NCBI RefSeq assembly: GCF_008638305.1
Contig: NZ_VTPZ01000005.1
Span: 77,444-141,443, forward strand
DNA: 64,000 nucleotides
Source of the DNA: Pseudomonas profundi
GTDB lineage: Bacteria > Pseudomonadota > Gammaproteobacteria > Pseudomonadales > Pseudomonadaceae
Direction: 5' to 3'
Of this stretch, positions 49,561 through 64,000 are shown piece after piece. Both the position numbers and the translations under genes were made by a program. The notes beneath the pieces were generated by a model. The model was not told the origin of the DNA. It ran no database searches and saw nothing but the letters and a program-made list of their open reading frames with translations. The stretch's first letter is position 1. Each line of letters opens with the position of its first letter.

Positions 49561-49576
49561 AGCTCGCCTTTGAGCT

Positions 49577-49842
49577 AGGGTCTGTTCCCGTTTCATCACG
49601 GCCGCGACGGAGGCCCGTTTGGTGCAGAACAAGGCGCGAGGAGCGTGATTTGGTTGTTCCAAATGAGCGACGAGTAACGCAGTGCTGCGCTAAACGAGCC
49701 CCGTCCCTTCGGGTTGCGCGGCAAATGACGCCATGCGGCGTTGCGGGACTTGGCAAGGGAACAACCATTACCTGCGTCCCGCGCCTTGCCTGGCGACATT
49801 TGACACAGCAACGCGGCTCGCGATGAAGCGGAAACAGACCCT
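49577..49842. repeat. MITE-like element with long terminal inverted repeats
   Basis: The 266-bp stretch begins AGGGTCTGTTCCCGTTTCATC and ends with its near-perfect complement GATGAAGCGGAAACAGACCCT; inner sequence is partly self-complementary and contains no gene. It fills the gap between two convergent genes without cutting either. I recall similar dispersed AGGGTCTGTT repeats in pseudomonad genomes, but there is only one copy in this window. No target-site duplication is clear (flanks GAGCT and GACTG). Confidence 0.75.
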
Positions 49843-49862
49843 GACTGCCCCGGCACTGATAC

Positions 49863-50735
49863 TCAATTGTTGTTCGGCACTGCCTCTGAATCGGCTTCAA
49901 GATTTGAATAATGCCCGACCACTATCAACAGATCGTCCTGACGACGCAGGAACGCCTGCTTCGTTTCAAACTTGCGGATAACGGGGTTACGCCATTGGTA
50001 GGAGTATGTCGCTTCGGGCTGATCATCGATCAGATCAAGCATGTCCTGCCCGATGGACTTGCCAGTCCGGTCCTTGAGCGAAACAAAATCCTGGCCTATC
50101 AGATTCAGATCATAGCCGTGGGCGACAAACTGTTTGCTCTGCAGATCGACAACGAAAGCATATAGCTCGTCCTGGATATACCGGGGGTCCAGCCAGTTGA
50201 TCGCGTTGAGAGTCTTGTGACGGTTTTCTTTCAGGTCTTCAGTGACACGGCCCAACAAAGCTTTCGCTTCTGCCTCACCAGGTCTGCCGAGGTAATAACC
50301 AACGGCCAGGATGTGGTCGCCGACCCGCTGGTAGAAAGCTTTTTTACGCTCGACCCTGCCCGTGCTCTGGTTCACCCAACGGTACTCGCCCTCGCGGACC
50401 CCTTCGCCGGACTCCGATAGTACCGCTTCAAAATCGAGCTTGAGCCTGTCATCCAGTAACGGCTTGATATTCCGACCAATCAACGCGTGGGATGGACCGC
50501 TGCTGGCGAGCATTACCCCTTCGCTATCAATGACGAAAACATACAGATTACCCTCAAGAAAGGGACCCTGCCGACTGAAAGCAGCCAGCGCGCGATCGCC
50601 TTCATCGCGGTAATGCTCCACCGCACGTTCAAGCAATTTTTTAGCTCGACTTGCCTCTTCAGGCTTGGTATCAGCGAATGTTGGCATTGCGAACGCGACG
50701 CACAGACTGATCAACACCATCCAGCACTTTTTCAT
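49863..50735 (-). CDS. Periplasmic tandem-Cache protein (paralogue 1)
   Basis: A 290-residue exported protein: signal peptide MKKCWMVLISLCVAFAMPTFA, then two similar halves (about 25-150 and 155-285), each with a Cache-type core (LYVFVIDSEGVMLASSGP and LYAFVVDLQSKQFVAHGYD). There is no membrane helix, kinase, cyclase or methyl-accepting domain, so it is a free periplasmic ligand-binding protein in appearance. AGGAG lies before the ATG. It is a close paralogue of the gene at 55143 with the same layout. Confidence 0.8.
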   Translation of the reverse strand: MKKCWMVLISLCVAFAMPTFADTKPEEASRAKKLLERAVEHYRDEGDRALAAFSRQGPFLEGNLYVFVIDSEGVMLASSGPSHALIGRNIKPLLDDRLKLDFEAVLSESGEGVREGEYRWVNQSTGRVERKKAFYQRVGDHILAVGYYLGRPGEAEAKALLGRVTEDLKENRHKTLNAINWLDPRYIQDELYAFVVDLQSKQFVAHGYDLNLIGQDFVSLKDRTGKSIGQDMLDLIDDQPEATYSYQWRNPVIRKFETKQAFLRRQDDLLIVVGHYSNLEADSEAVPNNN

Positions 50736-51064
50736 TTTGTTCTCCTGGTCGGTACTTTGTTGGTTAGCTTGCCCATCCAGTCAGGGATACAGCATCGTCC
50801 ATAAGGACGAGCCGGCTTGTTCAATATGAGGCAACTGACAAACCGTCCGGCGGCGTCGTCATTGCACGGCACCGGCAGTCCGGGCTCGCTGCGTAAATGG
50901 AAGAGAGGGGAACGACATCTGCTGGAGAGGCGACTGCGCGGCCTCGGAGGGGCGGGCCAGATAGACATTCGCGCCGTTTGCCTGGCCCGTACACTTGATA
51001 AGAATACGAACGAAACGTCGGCCGGACAGATGCGAACCTGTCAGACCAGACGTTTCCAGGTTCG
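50736..51064. other. Intergenic region with nested hairpin
   Basis: 329 bp between the Rieske gene stop and the Cache gene. Just past the Rieske stop, AAACGTC/GACGTTT (51013-51055) enclose a second stem GACAG/CTGTC, a likely but U-poor terminator. Nothing else is recognised. Confidence 0.4.
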
Positions 51065-52102
51065 CTACTTATCTACCGTGACGATTTCCTGACGCTGTTT
51101 CAGTGAAGCGGGCACGTCCGCTTCGTCCATGAAGAACTGCGAGTACCACTCGCGTAGCTGATAGACCGGACCGTCGCCCTCGGCGAGCAGCGGATTATCG
51201 ATACGCACTTTGGTTTTCCAGATATCCACGTCCTGGTAAAAAGATTCGCGGTTCTGTTGAACATATTGCAGAGCCAGGTCCCGGTTCTGCTCTTCGGTCC
51301 AACCCGGAATCTTCTTCACCAGTACACCAAAGCGCAGCTCGAAACTGTTCGGCGTGATGGGCACGTGGCAGTTCAGCAGGATGCTTTCAACAGTCATTCC
51401 GTCAAACTCAGCGCGCATACGGGTAAAGTGCGTAGCGGGACCGTGATAAGCCGACTCGGCAACCAGGTCGCCACCTAAACGCTCTGAATCACCATGGAAT
51501 GTCTGCTCACCGATATGCCCTTCGAAGACGTTCGAAAAATATTTGGTCGGTGTGCCATGGACCGGACCAAAATGTTGCGCATCCGCCAGGTTATCGACCA
51601 GCTCCCGCGGATTGGTCTCGATGATCATCAGATCAAGGTGCCAATCATGATCCCACTCATCACTGTCAATTTCAGGCAGGTACGGTATTTCGACGCCTTC
51701 CGCAGGTGCTTTGCCTTCTGGGTTGTTCCATACGAACAACAAGCGGTTGACCTCTTTGGTCAGCCATTTGCGGGTTTTGGCTTTCGGAGGCACGCGTTTG
51801 CAATAGGGAATCGACGCACAGCGACCGCTGGCTTCGAACTCCCAATGATGGAACGGGCAGACGATACGGCCATTTACCAGCTCACCGGTAGACAGATCAG
51901 CGCCCATGTGCGGACAATGTGCGTCAAGCACGCTGATCTGGCCTTCGTCAGTGGCAAACGCCAGCAGGCGTGTCCCGAAGATATTCAGAGTATGGATCTG
52001 GCCGTCGCGGTATTTTTCGGCTTCGCCAAGACAATGCCAACCACGCGCATAGCGATACTCCGCCGTGGTTGGGACTGTTTTTATATCTATCATTTGTGTC
52101 AT
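51065..52102 (-). CDS. KshA-like Rieske oxygenase component
   Basis: A 345-residue Rieske non-heme iron oxygenase. The [2Fe-2S] ligands are in CPHMGAD (Cys63, His65) and CPFHHWEF (Cys82, His85); the mononuclear iron site is N-L-A-D-A-Q-H-F-G-P-V-H (Asp174, His177, His182). The spacing resembles 3-ketosteroid 9-alpha-hydroxylase KshA and related sterol desaturases. Such enzymes need a ferredoxin reductase, and none is encoded here. I prefer the ATG at 52102, with GAGG 8 nt upstream, over the one at 52108. Confidence 0.85.
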   Translation of the reverse strand: MTQMIDIKTVPTTAEYRYARGWHCLGEAEKYRDGQIHTLNIFGTRLLAFATDEGQISVLDAHCPHMGADLSTGELVNGRIVCPFHHWEFEASGRCASIPYCKRVPPKAKTRKWLTKEVNRLLFVWNNPEGKAPAEGVEIPYLPEIDSDEWDHDWHLDLMIIETNPRELVDNLADAQHFGPVHGTPTKYFSNVFEGHIGEQTFHGDSERLGGDLVAESAYHGPATHFTRMRAEFDGMTVESILLNCHVPITPNSFELRFGVLVKKIPGWTEEQNRDLALQYVQQNRESFYQDVDIWKTKVRIDNPLLAEGDGPVYQLREWYSQFFMDEADVPASLKQRQEIVTVDK

Positions 52103-52220
52103 GCCCATGTCCTCGCTTCAATTCATCTGCGGCGTGTATAACCACATTCAACGTAGGACATAGTCGCCAAGCCAGCGGATTGCTTCATCCTCCACTCGGA
52201 CTAGATCATCGACCGGCTGA

Positions 52221-53057
52221 TCAAGCTCGCCAATCTGCGACGATTTCCTGCTTGAGCGCGAATGGCTGCGCGTTGATCGTCTTTTTCTGATGCGCGCCTT
52301 CGACATCCTTACAGGCAAGCCAGCAGATCACCTCGGCCGGCACATCGGGCGGAGCGGAGCCGTTGCGCAGCGCGATGACACCTTTTTCGCCAATGGTTGC
52401 TTTCAGCGCTTCGGTCGTCACCACTCCGGGATTCACCGTATAGGCCCGCAAGCCCTGGCTACCCAGTTCTGTTGTAATGATGCCAGAAAGCCGCGATACG
52501 GCTGCCTTTCCTGCTCCGTAGGCATAGCCCCAACCGCCCTTGCCTGCGGCGACCGGCGGATCGGTTTCACCGGCACCCGATGTGATATTGATGATCACGC
52601 CAACCCCGCGCTCGGACATGTGCGCGGCGATCCTCTGGCTTAGCAGGAATGGAGCAAGCAGGTAGCCCTGATAGACACGCTCGAGGGTGTCAGGACCAAG
52701 ATCCATGAACGCACTGTTGAGGTCTTTGCCTTGATACACAGCATTATTGACCAGCACATCCACTCGACCAGCCTGGTCTATCGCTGCCGCGGCGGCTGAC
52801 AGTACCGACTCCGCATCGAGAAGATCCATCCGGATAGTCCATGCCTTGCGCCCGAGTTTCTCCACCAACGCGGCGGTCTCCAGCAAACTACCAGCCAACG
52901 GCAGACCCTCGGCGGTAGTCAGGGCGTGTTCGTGTTTTTCACCTTCGGCGAGCGTTCGTGCGCTGAGCACGATATCGAAACCCCGTTGGGCAAAAGAGAG
53001 AGCAGTTGCGCGACCTATGCCGCGACTGGCACCGGTGATAAAGGCGACCTTGTTCAT
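52221..53057 (-). CDS. Short-chain dehydrogenase/reductase, probable catabolic
   Basis: A 278-residue SDR: TGASRGIGRA cofactor loop, NNAVYQ, ITSGAGE for the active Ser and YAYGAGKAAVSRL for Tyr-x3-Lys. It lies 118 bp before the Rieske gene on the same strand. The ATG at 53057 follows GGAGG, but start codon and ribosome site lie within an 11-bp perfect hairpin (53055-53084). The longer frame to 53081 is unlikely. In such clusters SDRs oxidise hydroxy groups on rings or acyl-CoAs; the substrate is unknown. Confidence 0.85.
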   Translation of the reverse strand: MNKVAFITGASRGIGRATALSFAQRGFDIVLSARTLAEGEKHEHALTTAEGLPLAGSLLETAALVEKLGRKAWTIRMDLLDAESVLSAAAAAIDQAGRVDVLVNNAVYQGKDLNSAFMDLGPDTLERVYQGYLLAPFLLSQRIAAHMSERGVGVIINITSGAGETDPPVAAGKGGWGYAYGAGKAAVSRLSGIITTELGSQGLRAYTVNPGVVTTEALKATIGEKGVIALRNGSAPPDVPAEVICWLACKDVEGAHQKKTINAQPFALKQEIVADWRA

Positions 53058-53084
53058 ATGGATCCTCCGTCTGGGATCCATATG
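53055..53084 (-). promoter_or_regulatory. Perfect hairpin covering the SDR start codon
   Basis: CATATGGATCC (53055-53065) and GGATCCATATG (53074-53084) are exact complements with an 8-nt loop. In the mRNA the 3' arm contains the start ATG and half the GGAGG ribosome site, so the structure could block initiation. It may equally be a protein-binding palindrome. Confidence 0.6.
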
Positions 53085-53150
53085 ATTGCTGAACAGGCCG
53101 GCTGGAGCATGGTCAATTCGGACCAGACGCGCACGGGGTCATGATATGGA

Positions 53151-53438
53151 TCAGCCCGTCGGACGTAGCGGCTTGACCTCAGGTTTGATCAACGAAGCAT
53201 TGCTGCCACGATAGGGGGAGATTCCGCCCTGGCCAAGGGATACGACACTGTTGAGCATGACGCGCACCAGCTCAGCCTGCCGCCTTACCCCCGTCTTGGA
53301 GAAGATTGCCCGGAGGTGGGCCCGCGCAGTGTTACGCATGATGCCGAGATTCTCGGCGGCTTCCTCCAGAGATAAGCCATTGGCAAGCTCCAATGCCAGC
53401 GCCGTCTCCGCGGGTGCTAGCGTGTATAGCGCCTCCAA
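53151..53438 (-). pseudogene. LuxR-type regulator remnant, N-terminus missing
   Basis: Only the C-terminal helix-turn-helix part remains: LEALYTLAPAETALALELANGLSLEEAAENLGIMRNTARAHLRAIFSKTGVRRQAELVRVM (in pieces), as in the LuxR regulators of about 370 residues. Upstream of residue LEALY the frame runs into sequence antisense to an SDR remnant, so no true N-terminus exists. It is probably dead, or at most a stray HTH. Confidence 0.75.
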
Positions 53439-53814
53439 ATTTGCCGTCGCTGGTTTTTCAGAATCCTTGGCGCAGGAAGTTGCAGGCTTTGGCATTAAGG
53501 TTACTTCGGTCGCACCCGGTGCCTTCCGCACGGACTTTCTGGACGATAGTTCAGCTCACTTTGGCAGCGAGCCCCTTCCCGAATATAAGACATTCTCTGA
53601 TAAAGTTCGCTCATCATCTGCTAACAACAACCATAAGCAACCCGGATCACCAGAGAAGCTTGGCCAGGCTTTAGTCGAGTTAGCATTGAATCCGGAAGCT
53701 CCACTCCATTTTATAGTGGGTTCCGATGCCGTCGGGCTGGCTGAAACCCGGTTAGCCTCGAGAAAACAGGAAATGCAGCGCTGGGGAAACTTAGCTATTT
53801 CTACTGACGCCTGA
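53422..53814 (+). pseudogene. SDR remnant, N-terminal half missing
   Basis: The frame contains VYSASKFAVAGFSESLAQEV, with the Tyr-x3-Lys pair, and PGAFRTDFLDDSSA, i.e. the C-terminal half of a classical SDR of about 280 residues. The cofactor-binding half is absent; upstream sequence belongs to the antisense LuxR remnant. So the two broken genes meet head to head at about 53422-53438. Confidence 0.75.
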
Positions 53815-53836
53815 CATCTCAGCAAAGATGGGCCGG

Positions 53837-54397
53837 TTAGCCCCGGCCAATCAGTTGCAGGAACTCCTGACGAGTGTTACCTGATTCACGGAAAGCACCC
53901 AGCATAACCGAGGTGAACATAGTGGAATTTTGTTTTTCAACCCCGCGCATCATCATGCACATGTGCTTGGCTTCTATCACTACGGCCACCCCTTCAGCCT
54001 GAGTCACCTGCTGCAGTGCCTCCGCGATCTGACGAGTCAGGTTTTCCTGTATCTGCAGACGTCGAGCAAACATGTCGACAATGCGCGCCACCTTGGAAAG
54101 ACCAATAACCTTACCGGTGGGAATATAGGCAACATGGGCCTTGCCGACAAACGGCAACATATGATGCTCGCAAAGAGAGTAGAGCTCGATATCCTTGACG
54201 ATCACCATCTCGTCACCCTTGGCATCGAACAGCGCATTATTGACGATCTCTTCCAGCGATTGCTCATAGCCCTTGCACAGAAACTGCATGGCCTTGGCTG
54301 CTCTTAGCGGAGTCCCTGCCAACCCGCCCCGCTGCGGATCCTCCCCAATGCCGCGCAAAATCGCCTCATACTGGAGAGCAAGATTCTCTGTACTCAT
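53837..54397 (-). CDS. folE: GTP cyclohydrolase I (FolE)
   Basis: A 186-residue enzyme making dihydroneopterin triphosphate from GTP. The zinc ligands are Cys76, His79 (LCEHHMLPF) and Cys147 (HMCMMMRG); [13 protein letters not shown] and QIAEALQ follow the family. It lies 9 nt past folM, so both serve the tetrahydrofolate/tetrahydromonapterin branch. The rest of the pathway (FolX) is not here. Confidence 0.95.
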
Positions 54398-54406
54398 TGT
54401 GTTTCC

Positions 54407-55129
54407 TTAAGCAAATTTGAGCATGCCGCCGCCGTTCAGATCTTGGCACGTACCGGTTATATAGGGATTGCCCATCACATAGCGCACAGCTTGATAAACC
54501 ACCTCGGGGCCTGGCTCGACGCCAAGAGCCAAACGGGACAGGATATGTTTCTTGAACTCTTCACTATCATTGTCGTTAAACATGATCAGCGCAGGGGCGA
54601 TACTGTTGACCTTGATGTCCGGCGCGAAACGAGCAGCGAAGGATCGCGTCATGTTTTCCAGGCCGGCTTTGGTGGCCAGATAGGCGACGTGATCAGCATT
54701 GCCCCCGAGCGCATCATGATCGGTAATATGGATGATGTCAGCCGGGCCTGAATCGAACCAGTCTGCAGCCGCCATATTGATCATGTAGGGAGCCTGCATA
54801 TGCACCATGCACATCTGCTGAAACTGCTCGGGCGTCAACCCCTCGTCTTCCAGCCACAATGAGGCGTTGTGAATGATGGCTCTTAAACGTAACCTCTTCG
54901 CCGCGACTGCCGCTATGAACTCTGCAATGCCTTCCACGGTTGAAAAATCAGCCACGATGACGTCAATACCCTGCAACGGAGTGGTTTGCCACTCCGCTCT
55001 CAGCCGGCGGCAGCTGATTACCACCTGGAAGCCATCCTCAACCAGGCGGCGAGCGCAATGCAAACCTACGCGCTGACCGCCGCCAGTGATCAGAACGGCT
55101 GGCCGGGACTTTATGGGCGCATCAGGCAT
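54407..55129 (-). CDS. folM: Dihydromonapterin reductase FolM
   Basis: A 240-residue SDR with GGGQRVG cofactor loop, HNAS and Tyr150-x3-Lys154 in VAYLATKAG; PALIMFNDNDSEEFK is a FolM block. FolM reduces dihydromonapterin to tetrahydromonapterin, the cofactor of Pseudomonas phenylalanine hydroxylase. The ATG at 55129 has GAGGG upstream. It follows the Cache gene by 13 nt, which ties it to that operon. Confidence 0.88.
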   Translation of the reverse strand: MPDAPIKSRPAVLITGGGQRVGLHCARRLVEDGFQVVISCRRLRAEWQTTPLQGIDVIVADFSTVEGIAEFIAAVAAKRLRLRAIIHNASLWLEDEGLTPEQFQQMCMVHMQAPYMINMAAADWFDSGPADIIHITDHDALGGNADHVAYLATKAGLENMTRSFAARFAPDIKVNSIAPALIMFNDNDSEEFKKHILSRLALGVEPGPEVVYQAVRYVMGNPYITGTCQDLNGGGMLKFA

Positions 55130-55142
55130 ATCAGCACCCTCG

Positions 55143-56009
55143 CTACTGTTCTTCGTCCAGGTAGTACCCCACGGCAACGATATAGTTGTCCGTCGCCTCG
55201 AACAGGGTCACTTTCGGTTCATTCTTGCGGGTTACTGGATTGGGCCACAGATAGGAAATACGACCGCTCCCGCTCTGCGCAGCGGCCTCCAGAATTTGGC
55301 TACCAATTGGATGTCGGTCGGCGGAGTGCAGCTTGCGAAAATCGCTGCCGACCAGGCGCAGATTGTAACCATGGGCAATGAAGCGCTGAGTTTCGCGATC
55401 AACAACAAAGGCGTAAAGATCATCCCGAAGGTACTCAGCATCCAGCTTGTTGATTCGCTCGAAGGTCTGCTGTGGATTTTCCTTCACCGCCTCCACGACA
55501 TGATTGAGCAGCGCTTTCGCTTCTCCTTCGCTTGAACGGGGCATGTAATAGCCCACCGAAAAAACCTTGCCATCAACGCGTTGAAAAAAGACTCGCTTGC
55601 GCTCTTCGCGGCCATCCTGCCAGTTCTGCCAACGATAGTCGGCATGATGTATTGTGTCGCTTGGCGGCAGGGCCAGCGCTTCCTTGAAGCCCTTGTTCAG
55701 GTCGTCGTTCAGCGCCTGGCTGACATCTCGCCCAATCAGATTGGCCGAGGGCCCACCACTGGCGAGCATGATGCCGTCGGTATCGATGACATAGACATAG
55801 AGTTCGTCATCAATGAACTGTCCTTGCCGACTGAACGCGGCGATGGCCTTTTCGCCATTCTCCTGATAGTGGTCGACGGCTTTGCGCAAAAGCGACTTTG
55901 CGCGATCCGCCTCTTCGGCGTAGCGATCTTCCGGAATGCCCTGACCAAACACATTGGCAACCAGGAACATCGTGGCAACCAGAACAACATTTCGACAGAT
56001 CAGTAACAT
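55143..56009 (-). CDS. Periplasmic tandem-Cache protein (paralogue 2)
   Basis: A 288-residue exported protein with signal peptide MLLICRNVVLVATMFLVANVFG and two Cache-like halves (LYVYVIDTDGIMLASGGP and LYAFVVDRETQRFIAHGYN). Shared blocks AKSLLRKAVDHYQENGEKAIAAFSRQG and VGYY make it a clear paralogue of the protein at 49863. AGGAG precedes the ATG. It sits between acyl-CoA dehydrogenase and folM, 13 nt from folM. Role unknown. Confidence 0.8.
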   Translation of the reverse strand: MLLICRNVVLVATMFLVANVFGQGIPEDRYAEEADRAKSLLRKAVDHYQENGEKAIAAFSRQGQFIDDELYVYVIDTDGIMLASGGPSANLIGRDVSQALNDDLNKGFKEALALPPSDTIHHADYRWQNWQDGREERKRVFFQRVDGKVFSVGYYMPRSSEGEAKALLNHVVEAVKENPQQTFERINKLDAEYLRDDLYAFVVDRETQRFIAHGYNLRLVGSDFRKLHSADRHPIGSQILEAAAQSGSGRISYLWPNPVTRKNEPKVTLFEATDNYIVAVGYYLDEEQ

Positions 56010-56063
56010 AGCCTATCTCCTGCTTTTTGTTTTGGGCGGCAAGATCTGAAGATCCAGGCCTCG

Positions 56064-57188
56064 TCAAAGATTCCTGCTGATAATCTCCTTCATGATTTCC
56101 GAGGTTCCACCGTAGATCCGCGCAACGCGGGCATCAACCCAGGCACGCCCTATCTTGTACTCGCTCATGAAACCGTAGCCACCATGAAGCTGGAGCAACT
56201 CGTCAAGCATCTTTCCTTGCATTTCCGAGCCGAGCAATTTTGCCATTGCCGCCACATCGGCAGTCAACTCGCCAGCCATGACCTTTTCCAGACAATCGTC
56301 GACGAAGACACGTAACATGGTCGCCTGGGCCTTCACTTCGGCCAGCTTGAACCGGGTATTCTGGAAGTCAAACACAGTGTTGCTGAACACCTTGCGCTCG
56401 CGTGTGTAGGCGATTGTTTCTTCAAGCAAGGTTTCAATCGACTGTGCTGCGCGCAGCCCAATAATCAATCGTTCCCAGGCAAGCTGATGGGTAAGGTACT
56501 TGAATCCCCGGTTTTCTTCGCCGAGCCGGTTGCTCACCGGTACACGCACGTCGTCGAAAAACAGCTCGGCAGTGTCCTGGCCTTTCAGACCGATCTTGTC
56601 GAGCAACCGGCCCTTGGAGAATCCGGCCCGGTCGGTTTCCACACACACCAACGTAAGATCCTTGCCCGCAGGGTCCAGTTTGGTAGCCGTCACCACCAGA
56701 TCCGCGTTGCCGCCGTTGGTGATAAAGGTTTTCTGGCCAGACACTACGTATTCATCACCTTCCTGGCGCAGTACGGTGCGCATGGAGCGCAAGTCGCTGC
56801 CGATTCCCGGCTCGCTCATGGCAATCACGCCAATCATCTCGCCGCTGACCATTTTGGGCAGCCATTTGTGTTTTTGCTCTTCGGAACCATAGGCGACCAC
56901 ATAGGGCGCAACGATTTCCGAATGGGTAGTAAAACCCACAGCCGTGGCATTGGCGCGTGCGAGTTCTTCGATCATCACGGCTGAATGTCCAAAATCCCCG
57001 CCCGCACCGCCGTATTCCTCAGGCACGGTTGAACACAGCAAGCCCATTTCGCCGGCTTTCAGCCATACTTCCTTGGGAACAATCCCGGCTTTTTCCCATT
57101 CATGCAGATTCGGAACGATTTCCCGCTCGACAAAGCGACGGGCCTGTTCCCTGAACATGTTGTGGTCTTCACGAAATACGCTACGCAT
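56064..57188 (-). CDS. Acyl-CoA dehydrogenase (LCAD/IVD-type active site)
   Basis: A 374-residue flavoprotein dehydrogenase forming trans-2-enoyl-CoA. It has MSEPGIGSDLRSM and QKTFITNGG as FAD/substrate blocks. The catalytic Glu is not at the medium-chain position (there IYGGTSE) but probably Glu239 in LAWERLIIG, the place used by long-chain and isovaleryl-CoA dehydrogenases, so branched or bulky acyl-CoA is plausible. It begins 27 nt past the crotonase. Confidence 0.9.
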   Translation of the reverse strand: MRSVFREDHNMFREQARRFVEREIVPNLHEWEKAGIVPKEVWLKAGEMGLLCSTVPEEYGGAGGDFGHSAVMIEELARANATAVGFTTHSEIVAPYVVAYGSEEQKHKWLPKMVSGEMIGVIAMSEPGIGSDLRSMRTVLRQEGDEYVVSGQKTFITNGGNADLVVTATKLDPAGKDLTLVCVETDRAGFSKGRLLDKIGLKGQDTAELFFDDVRVPVSNRLGEENRGFKYLTHQLAWERLIIGLRAAQSIETLLEETIAYTRERKVFSNTVFDFQNTRFKLAEVKAQATMLRVFVDDCLEKVMAGELTADVAAMAKLLGSEMQGKMLDELLQLHGGYGFMSEYKIGRAWVDARVARIYGGTSEIMKEIISRNL

Positions 57189-57215
57189 CGTGATGGTCTC
57201 CTTTGAGCAGGCTCA

Positions 57216-58016
57216 TTATTTGTCGTTGAAATTCGGTTCGCGCTTCTCTACAAACGCACTGACCGCTTCGCGGTGATCTTCAGTGTGGTGAGCCAGAGAC
57301 TGATAGGCGGCCGAGAGCTCGAGCAACGAGTCCAACCGCATGTGCTGACCTTCACGCAGCAGGCGCTTGCAGAGACGCAGAGCATGCCCCGGGTTCCGGG
57401 CAATGCGCTCGGCCATCGCCAACGCTTCCGACTCTAGCGCCTCCGGCGTGCAGACCTGCTCAACCAGGCCCCACTCCAGCGCCTTGGCCGCATCAATGGT
57501 GTCCCCGGTGAAAGCCATCAGGCTGGCCTTGGGAATGCCGATGATGCGCGGCAACAACCAGGCGCCGCCGTCACCCGGCACAATGCCAAGTTTCACAAAG
57601 CTTTCAGCGAACAGGGCTTTATCGCTGGCGATGCGGATATCACACATGCACGCCAGATCAAGCCCCGCGCCAATAGCGGGTCCGTTCACCGCAGCGATAA
57701 TCGGGATATCCAGTTCGTAGAGCGCCAGCGGGATCTGCTGGATACCGTTGCGGTAGGTATCGCGCAGGTCATATGGCGAGCCGGCAAAAATGCCCTCGCG
57801 ATTCTGCATGTCCTTGATATTGCCGCCCGCACAAAAAGCTTTGCCGTTACCGGTCAGGACCATGACCCTGACGCTCTGGTCGCGTCGCAGATCGCGGCAG
57901 AGGTCGACAAACTCCTGCATCTGGGACGGTTCGGACAGGGCGTTGCGTGTTTCAGGACTATTCATCCTGACCACGGCTACTCCGCCGTTGCGTTGTACCT
58001 GTAGAAACTCGCTCAT
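57216..58016 (-). CDS. Crotonase-family enzyme, PaaG-like
   Basis: A 266-residue crotonase. The oxyanion region AFCAGGNIKDM and GPAIGAGLDLACMCD are normal. In alignment from memory with rat enoyl-CoA hydratase both catalytic glutamates are replaced (Phe and Leu), while an Asp sits in GIVPGDGGAWLLPR, as in PaaG-type isomerases. So isomerase activity is at least as likely as hydration. Its ATG overlaps the stop of the gene before by ATGA. Confidence 0.85.
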   Translation of the reverse strand: MSEFLQVQRNGGVAVVRMNSPETRNALSEPSQMQEFVDLCRDLRRDQSVRVMVLTGNGKAFCAGGNIKDMQNREGIFAGSPYDLRDTYRNGIQQIPLALYELDIPIIAAVNGPAIGAGLDLACMCDIRIASDKALFAESFVKLGIVPGDGGAWLLPRIIGIPKASLMAFTGDTIDAAKALEWGLVEQVCTPEALESEALAMAERIARNPGHALRLCKRLLREGQHMRLDSLLELSAAYQSLAHHTEDHREAVSAFVEKREPNFNDK

Positions 58017-59086
58017 AGATGTGATCCTTGTGGCGGGACGATCAACTCTTGTTGCTGCGCATGAGTAATGGCGGGCCAGAAGTTCTGGGCGCCAGCGGCG
58101 CAGATGTGCGCGCCGAGCAGCTTGCTCCAGAACGTCGACGATCCGTATTCACCCCGCCATGCCCACAAGCGACGGGTCAGCAGGTGCAGCGTGTATTCCT
58201 GGGTAAAGCCGATAGCGCCATGCACTGAGTGACCTATCCCCGCTCCGAGACTCGCCGCCTCGGCCGTGCTTACCTTGGCGGCAGCGATACTGAAGGCAGC
58301 CAGGTGGTCGGTGGATTCGACGAAGGCGGCTTCGGCAGCAATGTTCGCTGCGGCCGTCTGCTCCGCCAGTACAGCCAGCTGCTGCTGGATCGCCTGGAAT
58401 GCCGCAATGGGCCGCCCGAATTGCTTGCGATCCGCCGCGTACCCGGAGGTGAGTTCCATCAATGCGGTCAACGCACCAGCCATCTGCGCGGAGCGCAACA
58501 TGGCGCCACCGGTAAGCAAGACCGACTCGCTGAGCCCGGCGGGCAAAGGCGCCGATGCCACGACGTTCGCCGCGGCGAACTGGAGCGTATCGCGAGGCTC
58601 TCCGGCAATATTGGTTCCCTGTATGATGTTTTCCGCTGCAGCCGGCTCCACTAGCAGGACAGTGCTTTCAGCTCCCTCCCCCACCATTGCAATCACCAGT
58701 TCGGCGTGCCGTCCCCACGGCACCTGACGCAGCTCGCCGGAAATCCTGCCACCGTTCCACTGCAAGCAAGAGTCGGTAGCGACTGTAAGCACACCGCTCC
58801 GGGCGCCAATACCGGCCTTCTCCAACAACCAGTTGCCCAGCAACATTTCAACCAGCGGAACGGGCGCTGCAAACCGGCCTGCGGCGCGGGCGATAACAAA
58901 CAGCTCGGACCAGCTGGCCTCTGCGCCGCCGGCAGCTTCTGGCGCCCCTGCCAGCAGGATGCCGTTGTCCTCCAACGCACTCCAGAGGTCGGCGGACCAG
59001 GCTCCGGACTCAGCCGCGCGGATGTATTCAGGCGTGGCGATGTCACCCAGTAAGCGTTCTATTGTCGATTCAAAAAGTTCTCGCAT
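58013..59086 (-). CDS. Acyl-CoA dehydrogenase subunit, short form
   Basis: A 357-residue divergent acyl-CoA dehydrogenase chain. The typical N-terminal signature and the catalytic Glu region are missing; the C-terminal helix bundle with YAADRKQFGRPIAAFQAIQQ and IGFTQEYTLHLLTRRLW is clear. Together with its neighbour (59086-60237, one-base overlap) it fits the two-subunit alpha2-beta2 dehydrogenases known from steroid side-chain breakdown (FadE28-FadE29 type). Confidence 0.85.
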   Translation of the reverse strand: MRELFESTIERLLGDIATPEYIRAAESGAWSADLWSALEDNGILLAGAPEAAGGAEASWSELFVIARAAGRFAAPVPLVEMLLGNWLLEKAGIGARSGVLTVATDSCLQWNGGRISGELRQVPWGRHAELVIAMVGEGAESTVLLVEPAAAENIIQGTNIAGEPRDTLQFAAANVVASAPLPAGLSESVLLTGGAMLRSAQMAGALTALMELTSGYAADRKQFGRPIAAFQAIQQQLAVLAEQTAAANIAAEAAFVESTDHLAAFSIAAAKVSTAEAASLGAGIGHSVHGAIGFTQEYTLHLLTRRLWAWRGEYGSSTFWSKLLGAHICAAGAQNFWPAITHAQQQELIVPPQGSHL

Positions 59087-60237
59087 TATCTGAGCCCCAA
59101 TCCACGTGCAATGATCCCGCGAAGGATCTCGCGAGTGCCCCCGCGCAATGAGAAAGACGGCGCCATCTGGGTCAGGTAGGCAAGCACCTGGGCGTGATCG
59201 GACCCGCCGCCCACCTGGGGTTGTTCTTCAACCAGCACCTGCAGCATTTCCGGGAGATCCTGCTCGAAAACATTACCCAGATCCTTGACGCACGAGGCAG
59301 CCCAAGCCGGGTTCTCACCGTCGCTCAACTGCCTGGTTACCGCCAGCGACATATTGCGCAGCGTCAGCAATCGAGCGGAGATGCGCCCTATTTCTCGAGC
59401 CTGCAGCGCGTCGGGCTTGGAGCCGATAGCTTTGATGGCCGTGTGCAGCAGCGCAATGCTGCTGAGAAAACGCTCCGGGCCGCTGCGCTCGAATGCCAGC
59501 TCGGCAGTCACCTGTCCCCAGCCGTTGCCCTCTTCACCCACCAGGGCGTCCGCGTCCAGGCGTACGTTATCCAGAAACACTTCATTGAAATGCTCACCGC
59601 CCGCCAGATCGGCAATAGGCCGAATCGTGACGCCGGGCAGACTCAGATCGATGATGAACTGCGACATGCCGCCGTGGCGGCCGCTTTCTTCCTTGTTACC
59701 GGTGCGCAGCAACGCAATCATGTAATGCGAATGCTGGGCATTGGTGGTCCAGACCTTCTGACCATTGACCAGCCAGCCATTGTCGACGCGCTGGGCGCTG
59801 GACTTGATGGATGCCAGATCGGATCCGGAGTTCGGCTCGCTCATCCCGATACAGAAATAGCTTTCGCCGCGGCATATCAGCGGCAGGTATTTTTCCTTCT
59901 GAGCTTCGGTGCCAAAGCGCAGGATCAGCGGTGCGCTCTGTCGATCAGCGATCCAGTGGGCCGATACCGGCGCACCCGCAGCGAGCAGCTCTTCAATGAT
60001 CACATAGCGTGCAAAGGGTGATGCCTCTGCCCCGCCGTACCGTTTTGGCAGCGCCATACCCAGCCAGCCTTTCTGCCCGAGCAGGCGACTGAACTCGGCG
60101 TCGAATCCCATCCACGAATAGGCTCGTTTGACCGGCGGATAATCCTGCAGAGCCTGATCGATAAACGCCCTGACGTCAGCACGCAGCGCTTCGGCTTCTG
60201 GCGGTATGGTGCTGTAGTTAAATTGGGAAATACTCAT
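59086..60237 (-). CDS. Acyl-CoA dehydrogenase subunit, catalytic form
   Basis: A 383-residue acyl-CoA dehydrogenase with MSEPNSGSDLASIKSSA, QKVWTTNAQHSHYMI and a C-terminal SLRGGTREILRGIIARGLG. The likely catalytic Glu is in LAFERSGPERFL. I start at MSISQFN (ATG 60237). It overlaps the short subunit by one base, so the pair is made in equal amounts. Confidence 0.88.
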   Translation of the reverse strand: MSISQFNYSTIPPEAEALRADVRAFIDQALQDYPPVKRAYSWMGFDAEFSRLLGQKGWLGMALPKRYGGAEASPFARYVIIEELLAAGAPVSAHWIADRQSAPLILRFGTEAQKEKYLPLICRGESYFCIGMSEPNSGSDLASIKSSAQRVDNGWLVNGQKVWTTNAQHSHYMIALLRTGNKEESGRHGGMSQFIIDLSLPGVTIRPIADLAGGEHFNEVFLDNVRLDADALVGEEGNGWGQVTAELAFERSGPERFLSSIALLHTAIKAIGSKPDALQAREIGRISARLLTLRNMSLAVTRQLSDGENPAWAASCVKDLGNVFEQDLPEMLQVLVEEQPQVGGGSDHAQVLAYLTQMAPSFSLRGGTREILRGIIARGLGLR

Positions 60238-60347
60238 CAACAAGACACCCTCAACTGCTCGAAGCAATGCAGAAAGCAGGTTTGTTGGTTGGCCCCCGCC
60301 TCACCACCGGCTGCGGCCGATGGCAAGGCAAGGCGTTAGTCCAAGCG

Positions 60348-61658
60348 TCAGATGGCCGTTTTGGCGTCTGCACTTTCAAACATCGCATTGATGTCGCCGG
60401 AGGTGACGGGCTTGCCATCTTTACGCGTGACTTCGGCGCCGCCGAGACCCAGAGCAGGCTCGGTGCTGACATGCGTCGCCTGAGCGCGGAGTGCGCCGAC
60501 TGTGCAGTTTTCACGACCACCGAGGACGGCGAACGGATCATAAGAGAACTCACGCATGGCGTTGAGGTGGGTAACCTTATTGATCTGTGTGTCGGTCAGG
60601 TTTTTCAGATGCGCCCAGGTCGTTTCGGGAGAATGCGGCCAGGTGCAATCGGAATGCGGATAGTCGCTTTCCCAGGTAACCATGTCTTCGTTCATGAACT
60701 TGAGATTCTGCAATCCGAAGTTGTCCTCGATAAAGCAGGTAACGAAGTGCTTGAAGAAGATGTCACTCGGCATTTTTCCGCCGAAGTCCGCATTGGTCCA
60801 GGCGTTGTGATGACGGTGAGTAAAGTCAGCCCGCTCAAGAAGATAAGGTACCCAGCCAATGCTGCCTTCTGAAAGAGCCATGCGCAGGGTCGGAAACTTT
60901 TTCCACATGGGAGCCCAGATCCAGTCGGCCGCCGCGTTGGCGATCGAAATCGGCATGGTAGTGATCCAGGCGTCGATAGGCGACAGGTCCGAAGCGTGTT
61001 CTGCTTTGCCGCCCGAACCGATATGGCAACAGATCACCACATTGTTATCGGCACAAGCCTTCCACATCGGGTCCCAGTATTCGTCGTGAATAGACGGATA
61101 ACCCAGGCGGGCAGGGTTGTCCGAAAACGACAGCGCGTGCACACCCTGGGCAGACAGACGCTTGATCTCTGCGACGGCGGCTTTCATATCCCAGTAAGGC
61201 ACCAGCATCAGGGGAATGAATCGACCCGGCATCGCATTGCACCAATCGTACAGGTGCCAGTCGTTGTAGGCCTGGATCGCCGCCAGGGCGATTTCCCGGT
61301 TGCCATGGGTCTGGAAACGCTGGCCGGCAAAACCAGGGAAGGTCGGGAAGCACAGCGAGCCCAGTACGCCGTTGGCGTTCATGTCATCGACACGCGCTTT
61401 CACATCCCAGGTACCACGACGCATCTGGTCGTAACCCAGCGGCTCCATCCCGTATTCTTCCTTCGGACGCCCCACTACAGAGTTGAGGCCCATGTAGCCG
61501 GTAGCTTCTTCTTCAAATACCCATACATCACGATCCCCACGCTTTTCGACGTGCGGCTCACGACCTTTGAATTTTTCAGGCATGTGGTGTTTGAAGGCGT
61601 CCGGCGGCTCGATCGCATGGTCGTCCACACTGACGAGGATGAGGTCTTCGAGATTCAT
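60348..61658 (-). CDS. TIM-barrel amidohydrolase-family hydrolase
   Basis: A 436-residue amidohydrolase-2 type protein. Metal ligands appear as VDDHAIEPPDAF near the start, CCHIGSGG in the middle and ESDYPHSD near the end. Such proteins include decarboxylases and ring or ester hydrolases of catabolic clusters; the reaction cannot be read. GAAGGGGAA precedes the ATG. It follows the P450 after a 219-bp AT-rich gap and precedes the dehydrogenase pair by 110 bp. Confidence 0.88.
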   Translation of the reverse strand: MNLEDLILVSVDDHAIEPPDAFKHHMPEKFKGREPHVEKRGDRDVWVFEEEATGYMGLNSVVGRPKEEYGMEPLGYDQMRRGTWDVKARVDDMNANGVLGSLCFPTFPGFAGQRFQTHGNREIALAAIQAYNDWHLYDWCNAMPGRFIPLMLVPYWDMKAAVAEIKRLSAQGVHALSFSDNPARLGYPSIHDEYWDPMWKACADNNVVICCHIGSGGKAEHASDLSPIDAWITTMPISIANAAADWIWAPMWKKFPTLRMALSEGSIGWVPYLLERADFTHRHHNAWTNADFGGKMPSDIFFKHFVTCFIEDNFGLQNLKFMNEDMVTWESDYPHSDCTWPHSPETTWAHLKNLTDTQINKVTHLNAMREFSYDPFAVLGGRENCTVGALRAQATHVSTEPALGLGGAEVTRKDGKPVTSGDINAMFESADAKTAI

Positions 61659-61726
61659 GGTGTATTCCCCTTCGCTGTTCGCGGATTGTGTTTGTTCTAC
61701 GATGTTAGTTCAGATCAGAGTTGATT

Positions 61727-61750
61727 TAAACACATTTTTGATTTGTGTCT
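61727..61750. promoter_or_regulatory. AT-rich inverted repeat upstream of the amidohydrolase
   Basis: ACACA and TGTGT flank AAATCAAAA-like sequence in an AT-rich island of the 219-bp gap between P450 and amidohydrolase. It may be an operator or promoter; evidence is weak. Confidence 0.3.
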
Positions 61751-61877
61751 ATATCTTTTTGGATTATCACGGGGGGGTCTTGCCTGAAGCTGCCTCCCTC
61801 GATTCGCTGGAGACGAGGAAACAAGCAGGTCTCTGGCCGGTTTTCAGCGAGCCCTGCTTGATACTGGTGCGGCTAAC

Positions 61878-63152
61878 TCAGTCCCAAAGGACGTGCAATT
61901 TATGCGGACCGCGGAGCTGCGCCCCGGTAATTTCCGGGGCCGGTTTGGAAGGATCGAGACGGATATTCGGGAACATGTCCAGCACCGCGTTGAGGGCGCA
62001 GTTGATTTCAGTCTTGGCGACGAACTGGCCAATGCACATGTGCGGCCCGAAACCAAAGCCGAAGGACGGACGCTGCCGACGGTCGATATCAAAGGTATCG
62101 GCGTTATCAAAGAACTCCTCGTCCCGGTTGGCTGAGCTGACGATGCACGACACCATCGCCCCCTTGGGAATCTTGACACCGCGAATTTCGGTTTCCTCCG
62201 CTGTCTGGCGCACCTTGAACGTCGCAACAGGTTCGAAACGAATCGATTCGTCGATCGCCTTGTTCACCAGGCTGCGGTCGTTGCGCACGCGTTCGAGCAG
62301 TTCCGGGTTTTCCAGCAGCAGCGTCATCAAGGTGCCGAACGTACGGGTAGTGGTCTCCCCCGCCGCAGGCAGCAGCGAACGCACGAAGGTAGTGATCTCA
62401 TGGTCATCAAGCGAGCGGCCTTCATATTCGGCGCGGATCAGGCGGCTGATCAGGTCATCGCCTTCCCCACCTTCGGCGCGGCGCTCGGCAACCACTACCT
62501 TGATCGCATCATAGAGCGCAACTACCGCCTCCATGGCGGCTTTCTTGGCCGCCTGGGCCTTGGCCGGATCGACTTGCGGACCGGCAAGAATGGCCAGTGC
62601 CCAGGCAGCGTACTGCTTTATTTTTTCCGGCTGGTCGTTGGGAAAGCCGATCAGCGAATAGATGACCCGGATCGGGAAATACAGCGCAAAATCCATCAGA
62701 TCCGCACCCTTCTGCGGCGCCATCGGAGTCAGAAATTCCTCACGAATGACCTTGTCGATGCGATCTTCCTTCCAGCGGTTGACAGTGTCCGGCATGAATA
62801 CAGGTTGCAACAGGTTGCGCATGTTCTTGTGCTGATCGCCGTCCATTGCGGTCAGGATCAATCCATCAAAGAAAGCGCCCAGTCCTTCTGCGATGAACCC
62901 GCTGGTAAACTGGTTGGCGTCGCGCATGACGCGCATAACGTCGTCATATTTGAACAACGTGAAGCACGGGCGATCAGGGTCTACACCCGCTATCGACGGA
63001 ACGCCCAAGCGCTCCATGAAGTTCCCTTCCAGCACCGGGCTATTCTTGCGCATCTCGGCATAGGCCGCGTGCAGGTCAATATCGGTACCCTGATAATTGC
63101 TCGCCACATCGGCGAACACCTGTTCAAGGTTGCTTTTGTTCTGTTCAGACAT
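61878..63152 (-). CDS. Cytochrome P450
   Basis: A 424-residue soluble bacterial P450. The I-helix has AAGETTTRTF (264-270), the K-helix ESIR (302-305) and the heme Cys373 lies in FGFGFGPHMCIGQ. Class I bacterial P450s need ferredoxin and a reductase; neither is in the window. It is first in the presumed operon, so hydroxylation probably begins the pathway. The ATG has AGAGGA upstream. Confidence 0.93.
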   Translation of the reverse strand: MSEQNKSNLEQVFADVASNYQGTDIDLHAAYAEMRKNSPVLEGNFMERLGVPSIAGVDPDRPCFTLFKYDDVMRVMRDANQFTSGFIAEGLGAFFDGLILTAMDGDQHKNMRNLLQPVFMPDTVNRWKEDRIDKVIREEFLTPMAPQKGADLMDFALYFPIRVIYSLIGFPNDQPEKIKQYAAWALAILAGPQVDPAKAQAAKKAAMEAVVALYDAIKVVVAERRAEGGEGDDLISRLIRAEYEGRSLDDHEITTFVRSLLPAAGETTTRTFGTLMTLLLENPELLERVRNDRSLVNKAIDESIRFEPVATFKVRQTAEETEIRGVKIPKGAMVSCIVSSANRDEEFFDNADTFDIDRRQRPSFGFGFGPHMCIGQFVAKTEINCALNAVLDMFPNIRLDPSKPAPEITGAQLRGPHKLHVLWD

Positions 63153-63228
63153 GACGCTATCCTCTTGTTGTTCCTGGCATCGCTTTCCAGCTTATGCCTG
63201 AACGCGCAGAATTTGAACTATTTTAGGT

Positions 63229-63242
63229 TTATTGCTCAATAA
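63229..63242. promoter_or_regulatory. Palindrome upstream of the P450 gene
   Basis: TTATTG-CT-CAATAA is an exact palindrome 77 bp before the P450 ATG, a candidate operator. The short gap also holds a small hairpin past the glutathione peroxidase stop. Confidence 0.35.
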
Positions 63243-63250
63243 CCGTTTTT

Positions 63251-63796
63251 TCAACGGGCCAACCATTCGTCGATAACGGTCAGCCCTTGGGGCTCGCTCA
63301 TATCCACGTCCGGCGCAAAGCGCGCCACGACCTGACCGTCGCGGTTCATCAGGAATTTCTCGAAATTCCACAGCACCTCCGGCGCGGCGTTCGGCTCGAT
63401 GCCATATCCCGCCAGCTTCGAACGCATGGGACCCTCACCTATCGCTTCCGGCGCGGCGGCGGTCAGCGCCTTGTAGAGCGGATGTTGCTGTTCGCCATGT
63501 ACGCTGATCTTCGAGAACAAGGGAAAGGTGACGTCATATTCGGTGCTGCAAAAGTTGGCGATTTCCTCATCGGTGCCGGGCTCCTGCGCTTTAAAATCGT
63601 TGGCGGGAAAACCCAATACCACCAGTCCCGCGTCCTGCTTTTCCCGGTATAGTTTTTCAAGCGCTGAGTACTGGGGTGTGAGCCCGCAACGGGACGCCAC
63701 ATTGACGATAAGCACCACCTTGCCTTCGAACTCGCCGAGCGTGGTGCTGGTGCCGTCCATTTTTTTCAGGGGGATCTGCTGCAGTTCAGTGTTCAT
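63251..63796 (-). CDS. Glutathione peroxidase family protein
   Basis: A 181-residue thiol peroxidase: catalytic Cys37 in NVASRCGLTPQY, the Gln in FKAQEPG and the Trp in VLWNFEKFL form the usual tetrad. It reduces peroxides with glutathione or thioredoxin. The partial gene before it lies 2 nt away, so both are cotranscribed. No signal peptide. Confidence 0.93.
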   Translation of the reverse strand: MNTELQQIPLKKMDGTSTTLGEFEGKVVLIVNVASRCGLTPQYSALEKLYREKQDAGLVVLGFPANDFKAQEPGTDEEIANFCSTEYDVTFPLFSKISVHGEQQHPLYKALTAAAPEAIGEGPMRSKLAGYGIEPNAAPEVLWNFEKFLMNRDGQVVARFAPDVDMSEPQGLTVIDEWLAR

Positions 63797-63798
63797 AA

Positions 63799-64000
63799 TC
63801 AGTCCTCATAGGCCTGTTGGACATAGGTCATGCGGCCGCCGGCCAGCATCAGCGCGCAATACATGTTCAGTTCGGTGATTTCAGCCAGGCTGAAAAAGCC
63901 CGCCAAGGCTTCATAGTGCTGGTCATCCAACGCCATATAGTCACCGGCGAAAAGTTCGGCGTAGCGCAGGGCGGCCTGTTCGGGCGGCGAAAAACGGTCA
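63799..64000 (-). CDS. AhpD/carboxymuconolactone decarboxylase-like protein, 3' part
   Basis: Only the last 66 codons are in the window: FSPPEQAALRYAELFAGDYMAL ... LAEITELNMYCALMLAGGRMTYV. This looks like the C-terminal half of the carboxymuconolactone decarboxylase/AhpD superfamily. It is upstream of and joined to the glutathione peroxidase gene, fitting an oxidative-stress pair. The start is outside the window. Confidence 0.65.
   Translation of the reverse strand, partial: DRFSPPEQAALRYAELFAGDYMALDDQHYEALAGFFSLAEITELNMYCALMLAGGRMTYVQQAYED

What the first reader, a model, noticed from the sequence alone, without database searches (positions are those of the whole stretch)
51065..63152. Undescribed catabolic cluster: P450, amidohydrolase, two-subunit dehydrogenase, crotonase and Rieske oxygenase
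Seven genes on one strand with tight overlaps combine a P450 (61878), a metal-dependent amidohydrolase (60348), an acyl-CoA dehydrogenase pair (59086, 58013), a PaaG-like crotonase (57216), another dehydrogenase (56064), and close by an SDR and a KshA-like Rieske oxygenase. The parts resemble steroid or cyclic terpenoid degradation, but no ketosteroid dehydrogenase, ring-cleavage dioxygenase, acyl-CoA ligase, ferredoxin or reductase is present. The substrate and step order are unknown, and the set matches no pathway I can name.
Basis: partly seen in the sequence, partly recalled or inferred. Interest (0 to 1): 0.7.

Follow-up and report, generated by a model that had tools for sequence, protein, structure and literature searches.

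The report
Resin-acid (diterpenoid) breakdown gene cluster
These genes look like one end of a widely shared bacterial cluster of the type that degrades tree-resin diterpenoids, and one gene that looks like a hydrolase is probably a two-metal oxygenase that could do a step whose enzyme has not been identified.

Summary
The genes are real. Six (P450, 'amidohydrolase', two-subunit acyl-CoA dehydrogenase, crotonase, another dehydrogenase) form one minus-strand block, kept in order in 60 of 80 related loci. It is not undescribed: it is one end of a cluster running 36-40 kb past the window. The block and 20 of 35 further ORFs match, at 50-80%, a chromosome-3 region of Paraburkholderia xenovorans LB400, a known resin-acid (dit) strain. 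Two close P450 homologues are filed as DitQ/ditQ2. The ring-hydroxylating and extradiol dioxygenases, CoA ligase, ferredoxin and reductase said to be missing lie just outside the window. The KshA-like gene and its SDR are unrelated neighbours beyond a breakpoint at 53410. The main correction is the 'amidohydrolase': its nearest solved relatives are DitZ and PtmU3, and all seven residues of the dinuclear-oxygenase site are present. It is probably a diiron or Mn/Fe oxygenase acting on a diterpenoid-CoA. I propose that it hydroxylates C-5, seen in Pseudomonas abietaniphila without a known enzyme, and so starts A-ring opening. A known kind of cluster with one good testable prediction.

The parts
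61878..63152 (-). Cytochrome P450, DitQ-like (424 aa)
   Evidence: Pfam p450; heme Cys373 and I-helix Thr267 in 75 of 75 hits of 45% or more; of 120 listed homologues one at 81% is filed as 'protein DitQ' and one at 82% as 'ditQ2' (two others as 'Pulcherriminic acid synthase'); 69% and 62% to two P450s of the LB400 region
60348..61658 (-). Predicted amidohydrolase-related dinuclear oxygenase (ARO), DitZ/PtmU3-like (436 aa)
59086..60267 (-). Acyl-CoA dehydrogenase, catalytic subunit (likely start ATG at 60237)
   Evidence: Best PDB hits Tcur3483 and 4x28 chain A; Glu260 in 67 of 67 hits of 45% or more
58013..59086 (-). Acyl-CoA dehydrogenase, FAD-binding partner subunit
   Evidence: Best PDB hits Tcur3481 and 4x28 chain D; R220, F223, Q231 in 66 of 66 hits of 45% or more
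57216..58016 (-). Crotonase-family protein
   Evidence: NF006699 439 bits, over cut-off 354; best PDB hit 7mcm, PaaG 4fzw_C third
56064..57188 (-). Single-chain acyl-CoA dehydrogenase
   Evidence: N-terminal, middle and C-terminal acyl-CoA dehydrogenase domains; 80% to its LB400 counterpart
55143..56009 (-). dCache-domain protein, 54 bp after the block; accessory, possibly a sensor
   Evidence: PF08269; within 3 kb after the block in 42 of 80 loci; no match in the LB400 region
63251..63796 (-). Glutathione-peroxidase-like gene (named by eye) between the P450 and the rest of the cluster; probably not a pathway gene
   Evidence: Present in G032, no match in the LB400 region
63799..64000 (-). Start of the cluster part outside the window: 169-aa protein (to 64308), then thiolase, 3-hydroxyacyl-CoA dehydrogenase, FAH, HxH amidohydrolase, TetR, CoA ligase, SDRs, ring-hydroxylating dioxygenase, extradiol dioxygenase, P450, ferredoxin, reductase (window-equivalent about 63799-99916)
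53410..53410 (.). Synteny breakpoint: left boundary of the conserved neighbourhood
   Evidence: Alignment ends at 53410-53413 in 6 of 8 relatives' loci (L002, L003, L004, L007, L008, L009); L005 and L006 end earlier, at 55158 and 53837
51065..52108 (-). KshA-like Rieske oxygenase; NOT part of the cluster
   Evidence: 318-339 bits to solved KshA chains; in 0 of 80 loci of the ARO; no co-inheritance
52221..53081 (-). SDR; NOT part of the cluster, travels with the KshA-like gene
   Evidence: Beside KshA in 5 of 7 relatives' loci; 0 of 80 ARO loci at 45% or more

Best explanation
The block is one end of a dit-type diterpenoid (resin-acid) catabolic cluster. The cluster makes the diterpenoid acid into a CoA thioester, oxidises the B and C rings (P450, ring-hydroxylating and extradiol dioxygenases) and dismantles the pieces by beta-oxidation. 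The window block handles the A-ring end. The 'amidohydrolase' is a dinuclear (diiron or Mn/Fe) oxygenase. Proposed chemistry, inferred: it hydroxylates C-5, which is beta to the C-18 thioester; the C4-C5 bond then breaks in a retro-aldol, opening ring A to a 2-methyl-branched acyl-CoA with a ketone at C-5. The two-subunit dehydrogenase, of the kind used on sterol side chains, oxidises that chain; crotonase, 3-hydroxyacyl-CoA dehydrogenase and thiolase finish the round with release of propionyl-CoA; the third dehydrogenase serves a further acyl-CoA. The cluster's ferredoxin and reductase supply electrons. Computed here: gene order, orthology, co-inheritance, metal-site residues, subunit complementarity. 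Inferred: substrate, C-5 regiochemistry, retro-aldol, step order, electron partners. Rough odds: dit-type cluster 0.8; dinuclear oxygenase 0.85; C-5 hydroxylation given both 0.55. The confidence below is for the cluster and the oxygenase together, not for C-5.
For: LB400 carries counterparts of all six block genes (51-80%) and of 20 of 35 further ORFs at 50-78%. The dioxygenase alpha subunit has a match at 68-98% in 16 of 16 genomes reached through loci of the block; by contig numbers and coordinates it is on the block's own contig in 15, and in G011 on another contig with a second ARO copy. In 36 same-genus genomes: ARO orthologue 13, alpha subunit 12, both 12, Fisher p = 1e-8 (relatedness not corrected for), 12.9-13.9 kb apart in all 12 and own. 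Two P450 homologues named DitQ/ditQ2. DitZ and PtmU3 as nearest solved structures; full metal-site residue set. PtmU3 hydroxylates C-5 of diterpenoid-CoA (PMC10127204 passage). P. abietaniphila makes 5-hydroxy-dehydroabietic acid by an unknown enzyme (PMC13063091 abstract and passages); 5alpha-hydroxy products also come from Burkholderia, Cupriavidus and Pseudomonas with a modified ditA1 and from Rhodococcus (PMC6891630 passages). Sterol-type two-subunit ACAD.
Confidence: 0.66

Rival explanations
1. Same cluster, different substrate: another polycyclic terpenoid or a petroleum-type tricyclic or naphthenic acid rather than plant resin acids. The oxygenase and dehydrogenases work as described but on that acyl-CoA.
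For: Many carriers are marine or oil-associated genera (Halopseudomonas, Marinobacter; the habitat is largely my recall); diverged ARO copies (49-57%) occur in G034, G046 and G069, and in G034 beside other acyl-CoA dehydrogenases.
Against: LB400, with the orthologous block, is a documented dit strain, and P. resinovorans is reported with 10 of 24 dit genes co-located (PMC10710418 passages; strain not seen there); two P450 homologues are DitQ-named.
Confidence: 0.2
2. The 'amidohydrolase' is a hydrolase or decarboxylase, for example a ring-opening beta-diketone hydrolase, and the P450 or another enzyme hydroxylates C-5.
Confidence: 0.12
3. Steroid catabolism: the KshA-like oxygenase and the block together degrade a steroid.
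For: The Rieske protein scores 318-339 bits to solved KshA chains; the ACAD pair is of sterol side-chain type.
Against: KshA is in 0 of 80 ARO loci, on another contig in the close relative G032, and not associated with the ARO in 36 genomes (4 both; p = 1.0); no HsaA over cut-off in the own genome (where none of 14 control genomes passed either).
Confidence: 0.03

Closest known systems
dit cluster of Paraburkholderia xenovorans LB400 (region found here: chromosome 3, about 597-666 kb)
   Same: Counterparts of the six block genes (51-80%) and of 20 of 35 further ORFs at 50% or more
   Different: In LB400 the P450 is not beside the ARO; it has a second P450 at 62%; gene order is partly rearranged; no match to the dCache or peroxidase-like gene in the region fetched
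DitZ of Rhodococcus rhodochrous (PDB 8uyr)
   Different: Actinobacterial and well diverged; function not found in print. A Rhodococcus plasmid ARO at 39% (not DitZ itself) has a P450, a crotonase-like gene and SDRs but not the six-gene order
PtmU3 (platensimycin biosynthesis)
   Same: TIM-barrel dinuclear monooxygenase; C-5 hydroxylation of diterpenoid-CoA
   Different: 22% identity; biosynthetic, not catabolic; E313 where this protein has an Asp
Two-subunit sterol acyl-CoA dehydrogenases (Tcur3481/Tcur3483; PDB 4x28)
   Same: Split catalytic Glu and FAD-binding motif; that these act on sterol side chains is recalled
   Different: Low identity; substrate unknown here
KshA, 3-ketosteroid 9alpha-hydroxylase
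   Same: The Rieske gene at 51065 belongs to this family
   Different: Not part of the cluster

Membership tests
dit-type diterpenoid cluster | DitQ-type P450 | tested here: met
   81-82% to two proteins that sources name DitQ and ditQ2, of 120 listed; a name, not a tested function
dit-type diterpenoid cluster | Ring-hydroxylating dioxygenase alpha and beta (DitA1/A2 type) | tested here: inconclusive
   Alpha and beta present, 73% and 56% to the LB400 region; no listed model or record was named DitA1
dit-type diterpenoid cluster | Extradiol ring-cleavage dioxygenase (DitC type) | tested here: inconclusive
   Extradiol family hit TIGR03213 206 bits, under the 366 cut-off; 72% to an LB400-region protein
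dit-type diterpenoid cluster | Synteny with a resin-acid degrader | tested here: met
   LB400 region, block and 20 of 35 further ORFs; P. resinovorans and P. vancouverensis carry block and dioxygenase
dit-type diterpenoid cluster | Growth on or induction by resin acids | not testable with these tools
   No strain or expression data
Amidohydrolase-related dinuclear oxygenase (ARO) | PF04909 fold | tested here: met
Amidohydrolase-related dinuclear oxygenase (ARO) | Six metal ligands plus the acidic residue of binuclear sites | tested here: met
   70 of 70 rows of A2, 81 of 81 hits in loci; ligand list from PMC7782822 passages
Amidohydrolase-related dinuclear oxygenase (ARO) | O2-dependent hydroxylation with Fe/Fe or Mn/Fe | not testable with these tools
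   Needs purified enzyme
Amidohydrolase-related dinuclear oxygenase (ARO) | Small Rieske ferredoxin within three genes | tested here: inconclusive
   None recognised by eye among called ORFs; no dedicated search was made
Two-subunit sterol-type acyl-CoA dehydrogenase | Catalytic Glu in one chain, FAD-binding motif in the other | tested here: met
Steroid (9,10-seco) catabolic cluster | HsaA monooxygenase | tested here: not met
   No match over cut-off in the own genome, best 51.5 of 450 bits; none of 14 control genomes passed either, so no positive control
Steroid (9,10-seco) catabolic cluster | KshA linked to the block | tested here: not met
   0 of 80 loci; Fisher p = 1.0 in 36 genomes

The most novel reading that the evidence does not exclude
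The DitZ-like dinuclear oxygenase is the missing C-5 hydroxylase of proteobacterial resin-acid degradation. By hydroxylating beta to the thioester it triggers retro-aldol opening of ring A, the same logic that platensimycin biosynthesis uses to build a drug (the link of PtmU3 to ring opening is recalled). The window block is the dedicated A-ring dismantling unit; I found no paper that says so.
Probability: 0.38. Interest if true: 0.65.

Novelty: new member of a known kind. Interest (0 to 1): 0.4.

Why it matters
Resin acids are toxic pollutants of pulp-mill effluent, and in the papers I could read the breakdown of their A ring has no assigned enzymes. The prediction gives one gene, one cofactor and one carbon to test. 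It also suggests that a common annotation ('amidohydrolase family protein') hides probable oxygenases across Pseudomonas, Halopseudomonas, Zoogloea, Thauera and Paraburkholderia, and it extends the likely diterpenoid-degrading repertoire to Halopseudomonas and Marinobacter.

Tried and rejected
Steroid pathway with KshA: rejected (one search agrees but had no positive control).

A plain hydrolase role for the 'amidohydrolase': put below the oxygenase reading.

First structure model from a shallow alignment (A1, 18 rows) was poor, pLDDT 55, and was not used; a wider alignment (A2, 70 rows, 58 of them chosen from the 120 proteins listed) gave 94.1.

Promoter and terminator scan of 53400-64000: promoters no better than shuffles (3 found, mean 4.6), terminators 15 found, mean 10.6, sd 3.7. 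Rfam found nothing at gathering score in 47000-64000. So cotranscription rests on spacing and conserved order only.

Literature on DitZ: none seen; one search counted 404 papers with the word, of which 10 were listed, none on an enzyme by title. Papers by Smith and colleagues on LB400 are not held. The supplementary dit gene tables could not be read.

A plasmid ARO of Rhodococcus rhodochrous was examined in case it was DitZ; its sequence differs.

Plasmid searches with the ARO and the dioxygenase gave 25 and 5 records with no dit names among the rows listed.
Full report
WHAT IS THERE. The six genes from 56064 to 63152 lie on the minus strand and are intact. Two junctions overlap by 1 and 4 bp; the others are gaps of 27, 80 and 219 bp. 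Pfam places them as p450, Amidohydro_2, two acyl-CoA dehydrogenase chains, enoyl-CoA hydratase family and a third dehydrogenase. A scan of bacterial and archaeal genomes with the 'amidohydrolase' kept 80 loci (the best 80 of 140 confirmed). Of these 80, 60 have all six genes in order on one strand; 6 have five in order with the P450 on the other strand some 7 kb away (4) or not within the flank at 45% identity (2); 14 lack the dehydrogenase block. Of the 14, one (L024) is cut off by a contig end and 12 are second copies in genomes that also have the full block among the 80; the last is L053. Carriers include Halopseudomonas, Marinobacter, Pseudomonas, Stutzerimonas, Zoogloea, Thauera, Aromatoleum, Massilia and Paraburkholderia. 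A Massilia putida plasmid carries the same six-gene order.

IT CONTINUES OUTSIDE THE WINDOW. The window is G000:C45:77444-141443. To its right, on the same contig, come a thiolase, 3-hydroxyacyl-CoA dehydrogenase, two fumarylacetoacetate-hydrolase-family genes, a second amidohydrolase, a TetR regulator, an AMP-type CoA ligase, SDRs, ring-hydroxylating dioxygenase alpha and beta, a thiolase/lipid-transfer-family protein, an extradiol dioxygenase, a second P450, a ferredoxin and a ferredoxin reductase (ferredoxin, reductase and some SDRs named by eye). Against 597-666 kb of chromosome 3 of P. xenovorans LB400, the six block genes match at 51-80%. Of the 35 ORFs called from there to window-equivalent 103556, 20 match at 50-78%, including all 16 up to 78970. 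The other 15 match at under 50% or not at all: among them an MFS transporter, an aldehyde dehydrogenase, a GMC oxidoreductase, the second P450 (26%), sensory genes and the ferredoxin (42%). The peroxidase-like gene, the dCache gene and FolE/FolM inside the window have no match there either.

CO-INHERITANCE. The dioxygenase alpha subunit has a match in 16 of 16 genomes reached through loci of the block, at 68-98% for the best match. As far as contig numbers and coordinates tell, it lies on the block's own contig, about 12-45 kb away, in 15 of them; in G011 (Pseudomonas citronellolis) it is on another contig, that of a second ARO copy. Among 36 same-genus genomes the oxygenase orthologue (83% or more) is in 13 and the dioxygenase in 12, both in the same 12. 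The odd one, G047, is only 75% complete. Fisher p = 1e-8, not corrected for relatedness, and the spacing is 12.9-13.9 kb in all 12 and in the own genome. G034, with copies at 55-57% only, was counted as lacking the orthologue, and the second copy of G046 (55%) was not counted apart.

WHY DIT. LB400 is named in print as a strain with a dit cluster, and P. resinovorans with 10 of 24 dit genes co-located (passages of PMC10710418). The review PMC6891630 (passages) describes LB400 and P. abietaniphila as abietane degraders. P. vancouverensis strain Dha-51 (L027) also carries the block and the dioxygenase; that it was isolated on dehydroabietic acid is my recall. Of 120 listed homologues of the window P450, one at 81% is called 'protein DitQ' and one at 82% 'ditQ2'; most are plain 'cytochrome P450' or unnamed and two are called 'Pulcherriminic acid synthase'. 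That the LB400 dit cluster lies on chromosome 3 is also recalled; the source papers are not held.

THE KSHA-LIKE GENE IS A BYSTANDER. Alignment to relatives' loci stops at window 53410-53413 in 6 of 8; the other two stop earlier. Left of that point the KshA-like gene, the SDR and a LuxR fragment match a separate locus of relatives: the SDR sits beside KshA in 5 of the 7 relatives' loci examined and the LuxR piece in 4 of 7, though one of these loci (L119) is shorter than the others. In the close relative G032 KshA is on contig 34 and the oxygenase on contig 57. KshA is in 10 of 36 genus genomes, the oxygenase in 13, both in 4: no association (p = 1.0). KshA is in none of 80 loci of the block. 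No HsaA passes its cut-off in the genome, but none of the 14 control genomes passes it either, so this search had no positive control.

MECHANISM. PtmU3 hydroxylates C-5 of diterpenoid-CoA (PMC10127204 passage). In 2026 P. abietaniphila was shown to form 5-hydroxy-dehydroabietic acid, the authors suggesting a different P450 from DitQ (PMC13063091 abstract and passages). The review PMC6891630 reports 5alpha-hydroxy products from ditA1-modified Burkholderia, Cupriavidus and Pseudomonas, and from Rhodococcus erythropolis (passages); Rhodococcus plasmids carry AROs. C-5 is beta to the C-18 carboxyl carbon, so a C-5 alcohol on the thioester would allow retro-aldol cleavage of C4-C5 (general chemistry, inference). 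That yields a 2-methyl-branched acyl-CoA chain. The block's dehydrogenase pair suits such a chain: it is of the sterol side-chain two-subunit type, with Glu260 in one chain (67 of 67 hits) and R220, F223 and Q231 in the other (66 of 66). The crotonase aligns best to an entry called enoyl-CoA hydratase (7mcm), and PaaG is the third-listed hit. By recall of the hydratase active site it lacks the second catalytic Glu, so it may be an isomerase or lyase rather than a plain hydratase. Which enzyme does the retro-aldol is open.

LIMITS. Everything here is sequence and structure inference. No expression, growth or enzyme assay was available. Whether the substrate is a plant resin acid or another polycyclic acid is not settled, above all for marine carriers. 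One search looked for Halopseudomonas together with resin-acid terms; none of the 15 rows listed of 536 held the genus name.

Counts for LB400, the breakpoint, the dioxygenase linkage and the second copies were recounted; the missing positive control and the ties were added; the probability of the novel case went from 0.40 to 0.38 to equal the product of its parts.

Noticed in passing
window 53151-53814: Two truncated genes seem to meet at 53410: part of a LuxR-type regulator (minus strand) and the C-terminal part of an SDR (plus strand), both named by eye. The sequence that follows in relative L002 lies, in part, about 73 kb away at G000:C45:54.9-57.5 kb. Either a rearrangement or an assembly join.
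   Followed up: partly
window 49863-50735 and 55143-56009: Two related dCache-type proteins (43%); the second follows the catabolic block within 3 kb in 42 of 80 loci and may be a sensor for its substrate.
   Followed up: partly
window 53837-55177: GTP cyclohydrolase (FolE, by eye) and a dihydromonapterin-reductase-like gene (FolM) sit next to the block in Halopseudomonas; FolE also follows it in Thauera, Aromatoleum and Zoogloea at about 48-49%.
   Followed up: no
L126 and L127 (G034:C2): A same-genus genome without the orthologous block has two diverged ARO copies (57% and 55%) beside other acyl-CoA dehydrogenases, thiolases and SDRs (named by eye): probably a related pathway for another substrate.
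   Followed up: partly
L045, L046, L049-L051, L053, L054, L056: Pseudomonas and Stutzerimonas loci with an ARO copy (78-81%) but no dehydrogenase block; in six of these eight the full block lies on the same contig, about 32-38 kb away.
   Followed up: partly
homologues of window 61878-63152: Close P450 homologues (81-82%) appear in many Pseudomonas aeruginosa records, so the cluster may be present in some strains of that species.
   Followed up: no
G000:C53:110870-148338: Five ring-hydroxylating dioxygenase alpha subunits lie within about 38 kb on another contig of the same genome: a dense aromatic-degradation region.
   Followed up: no
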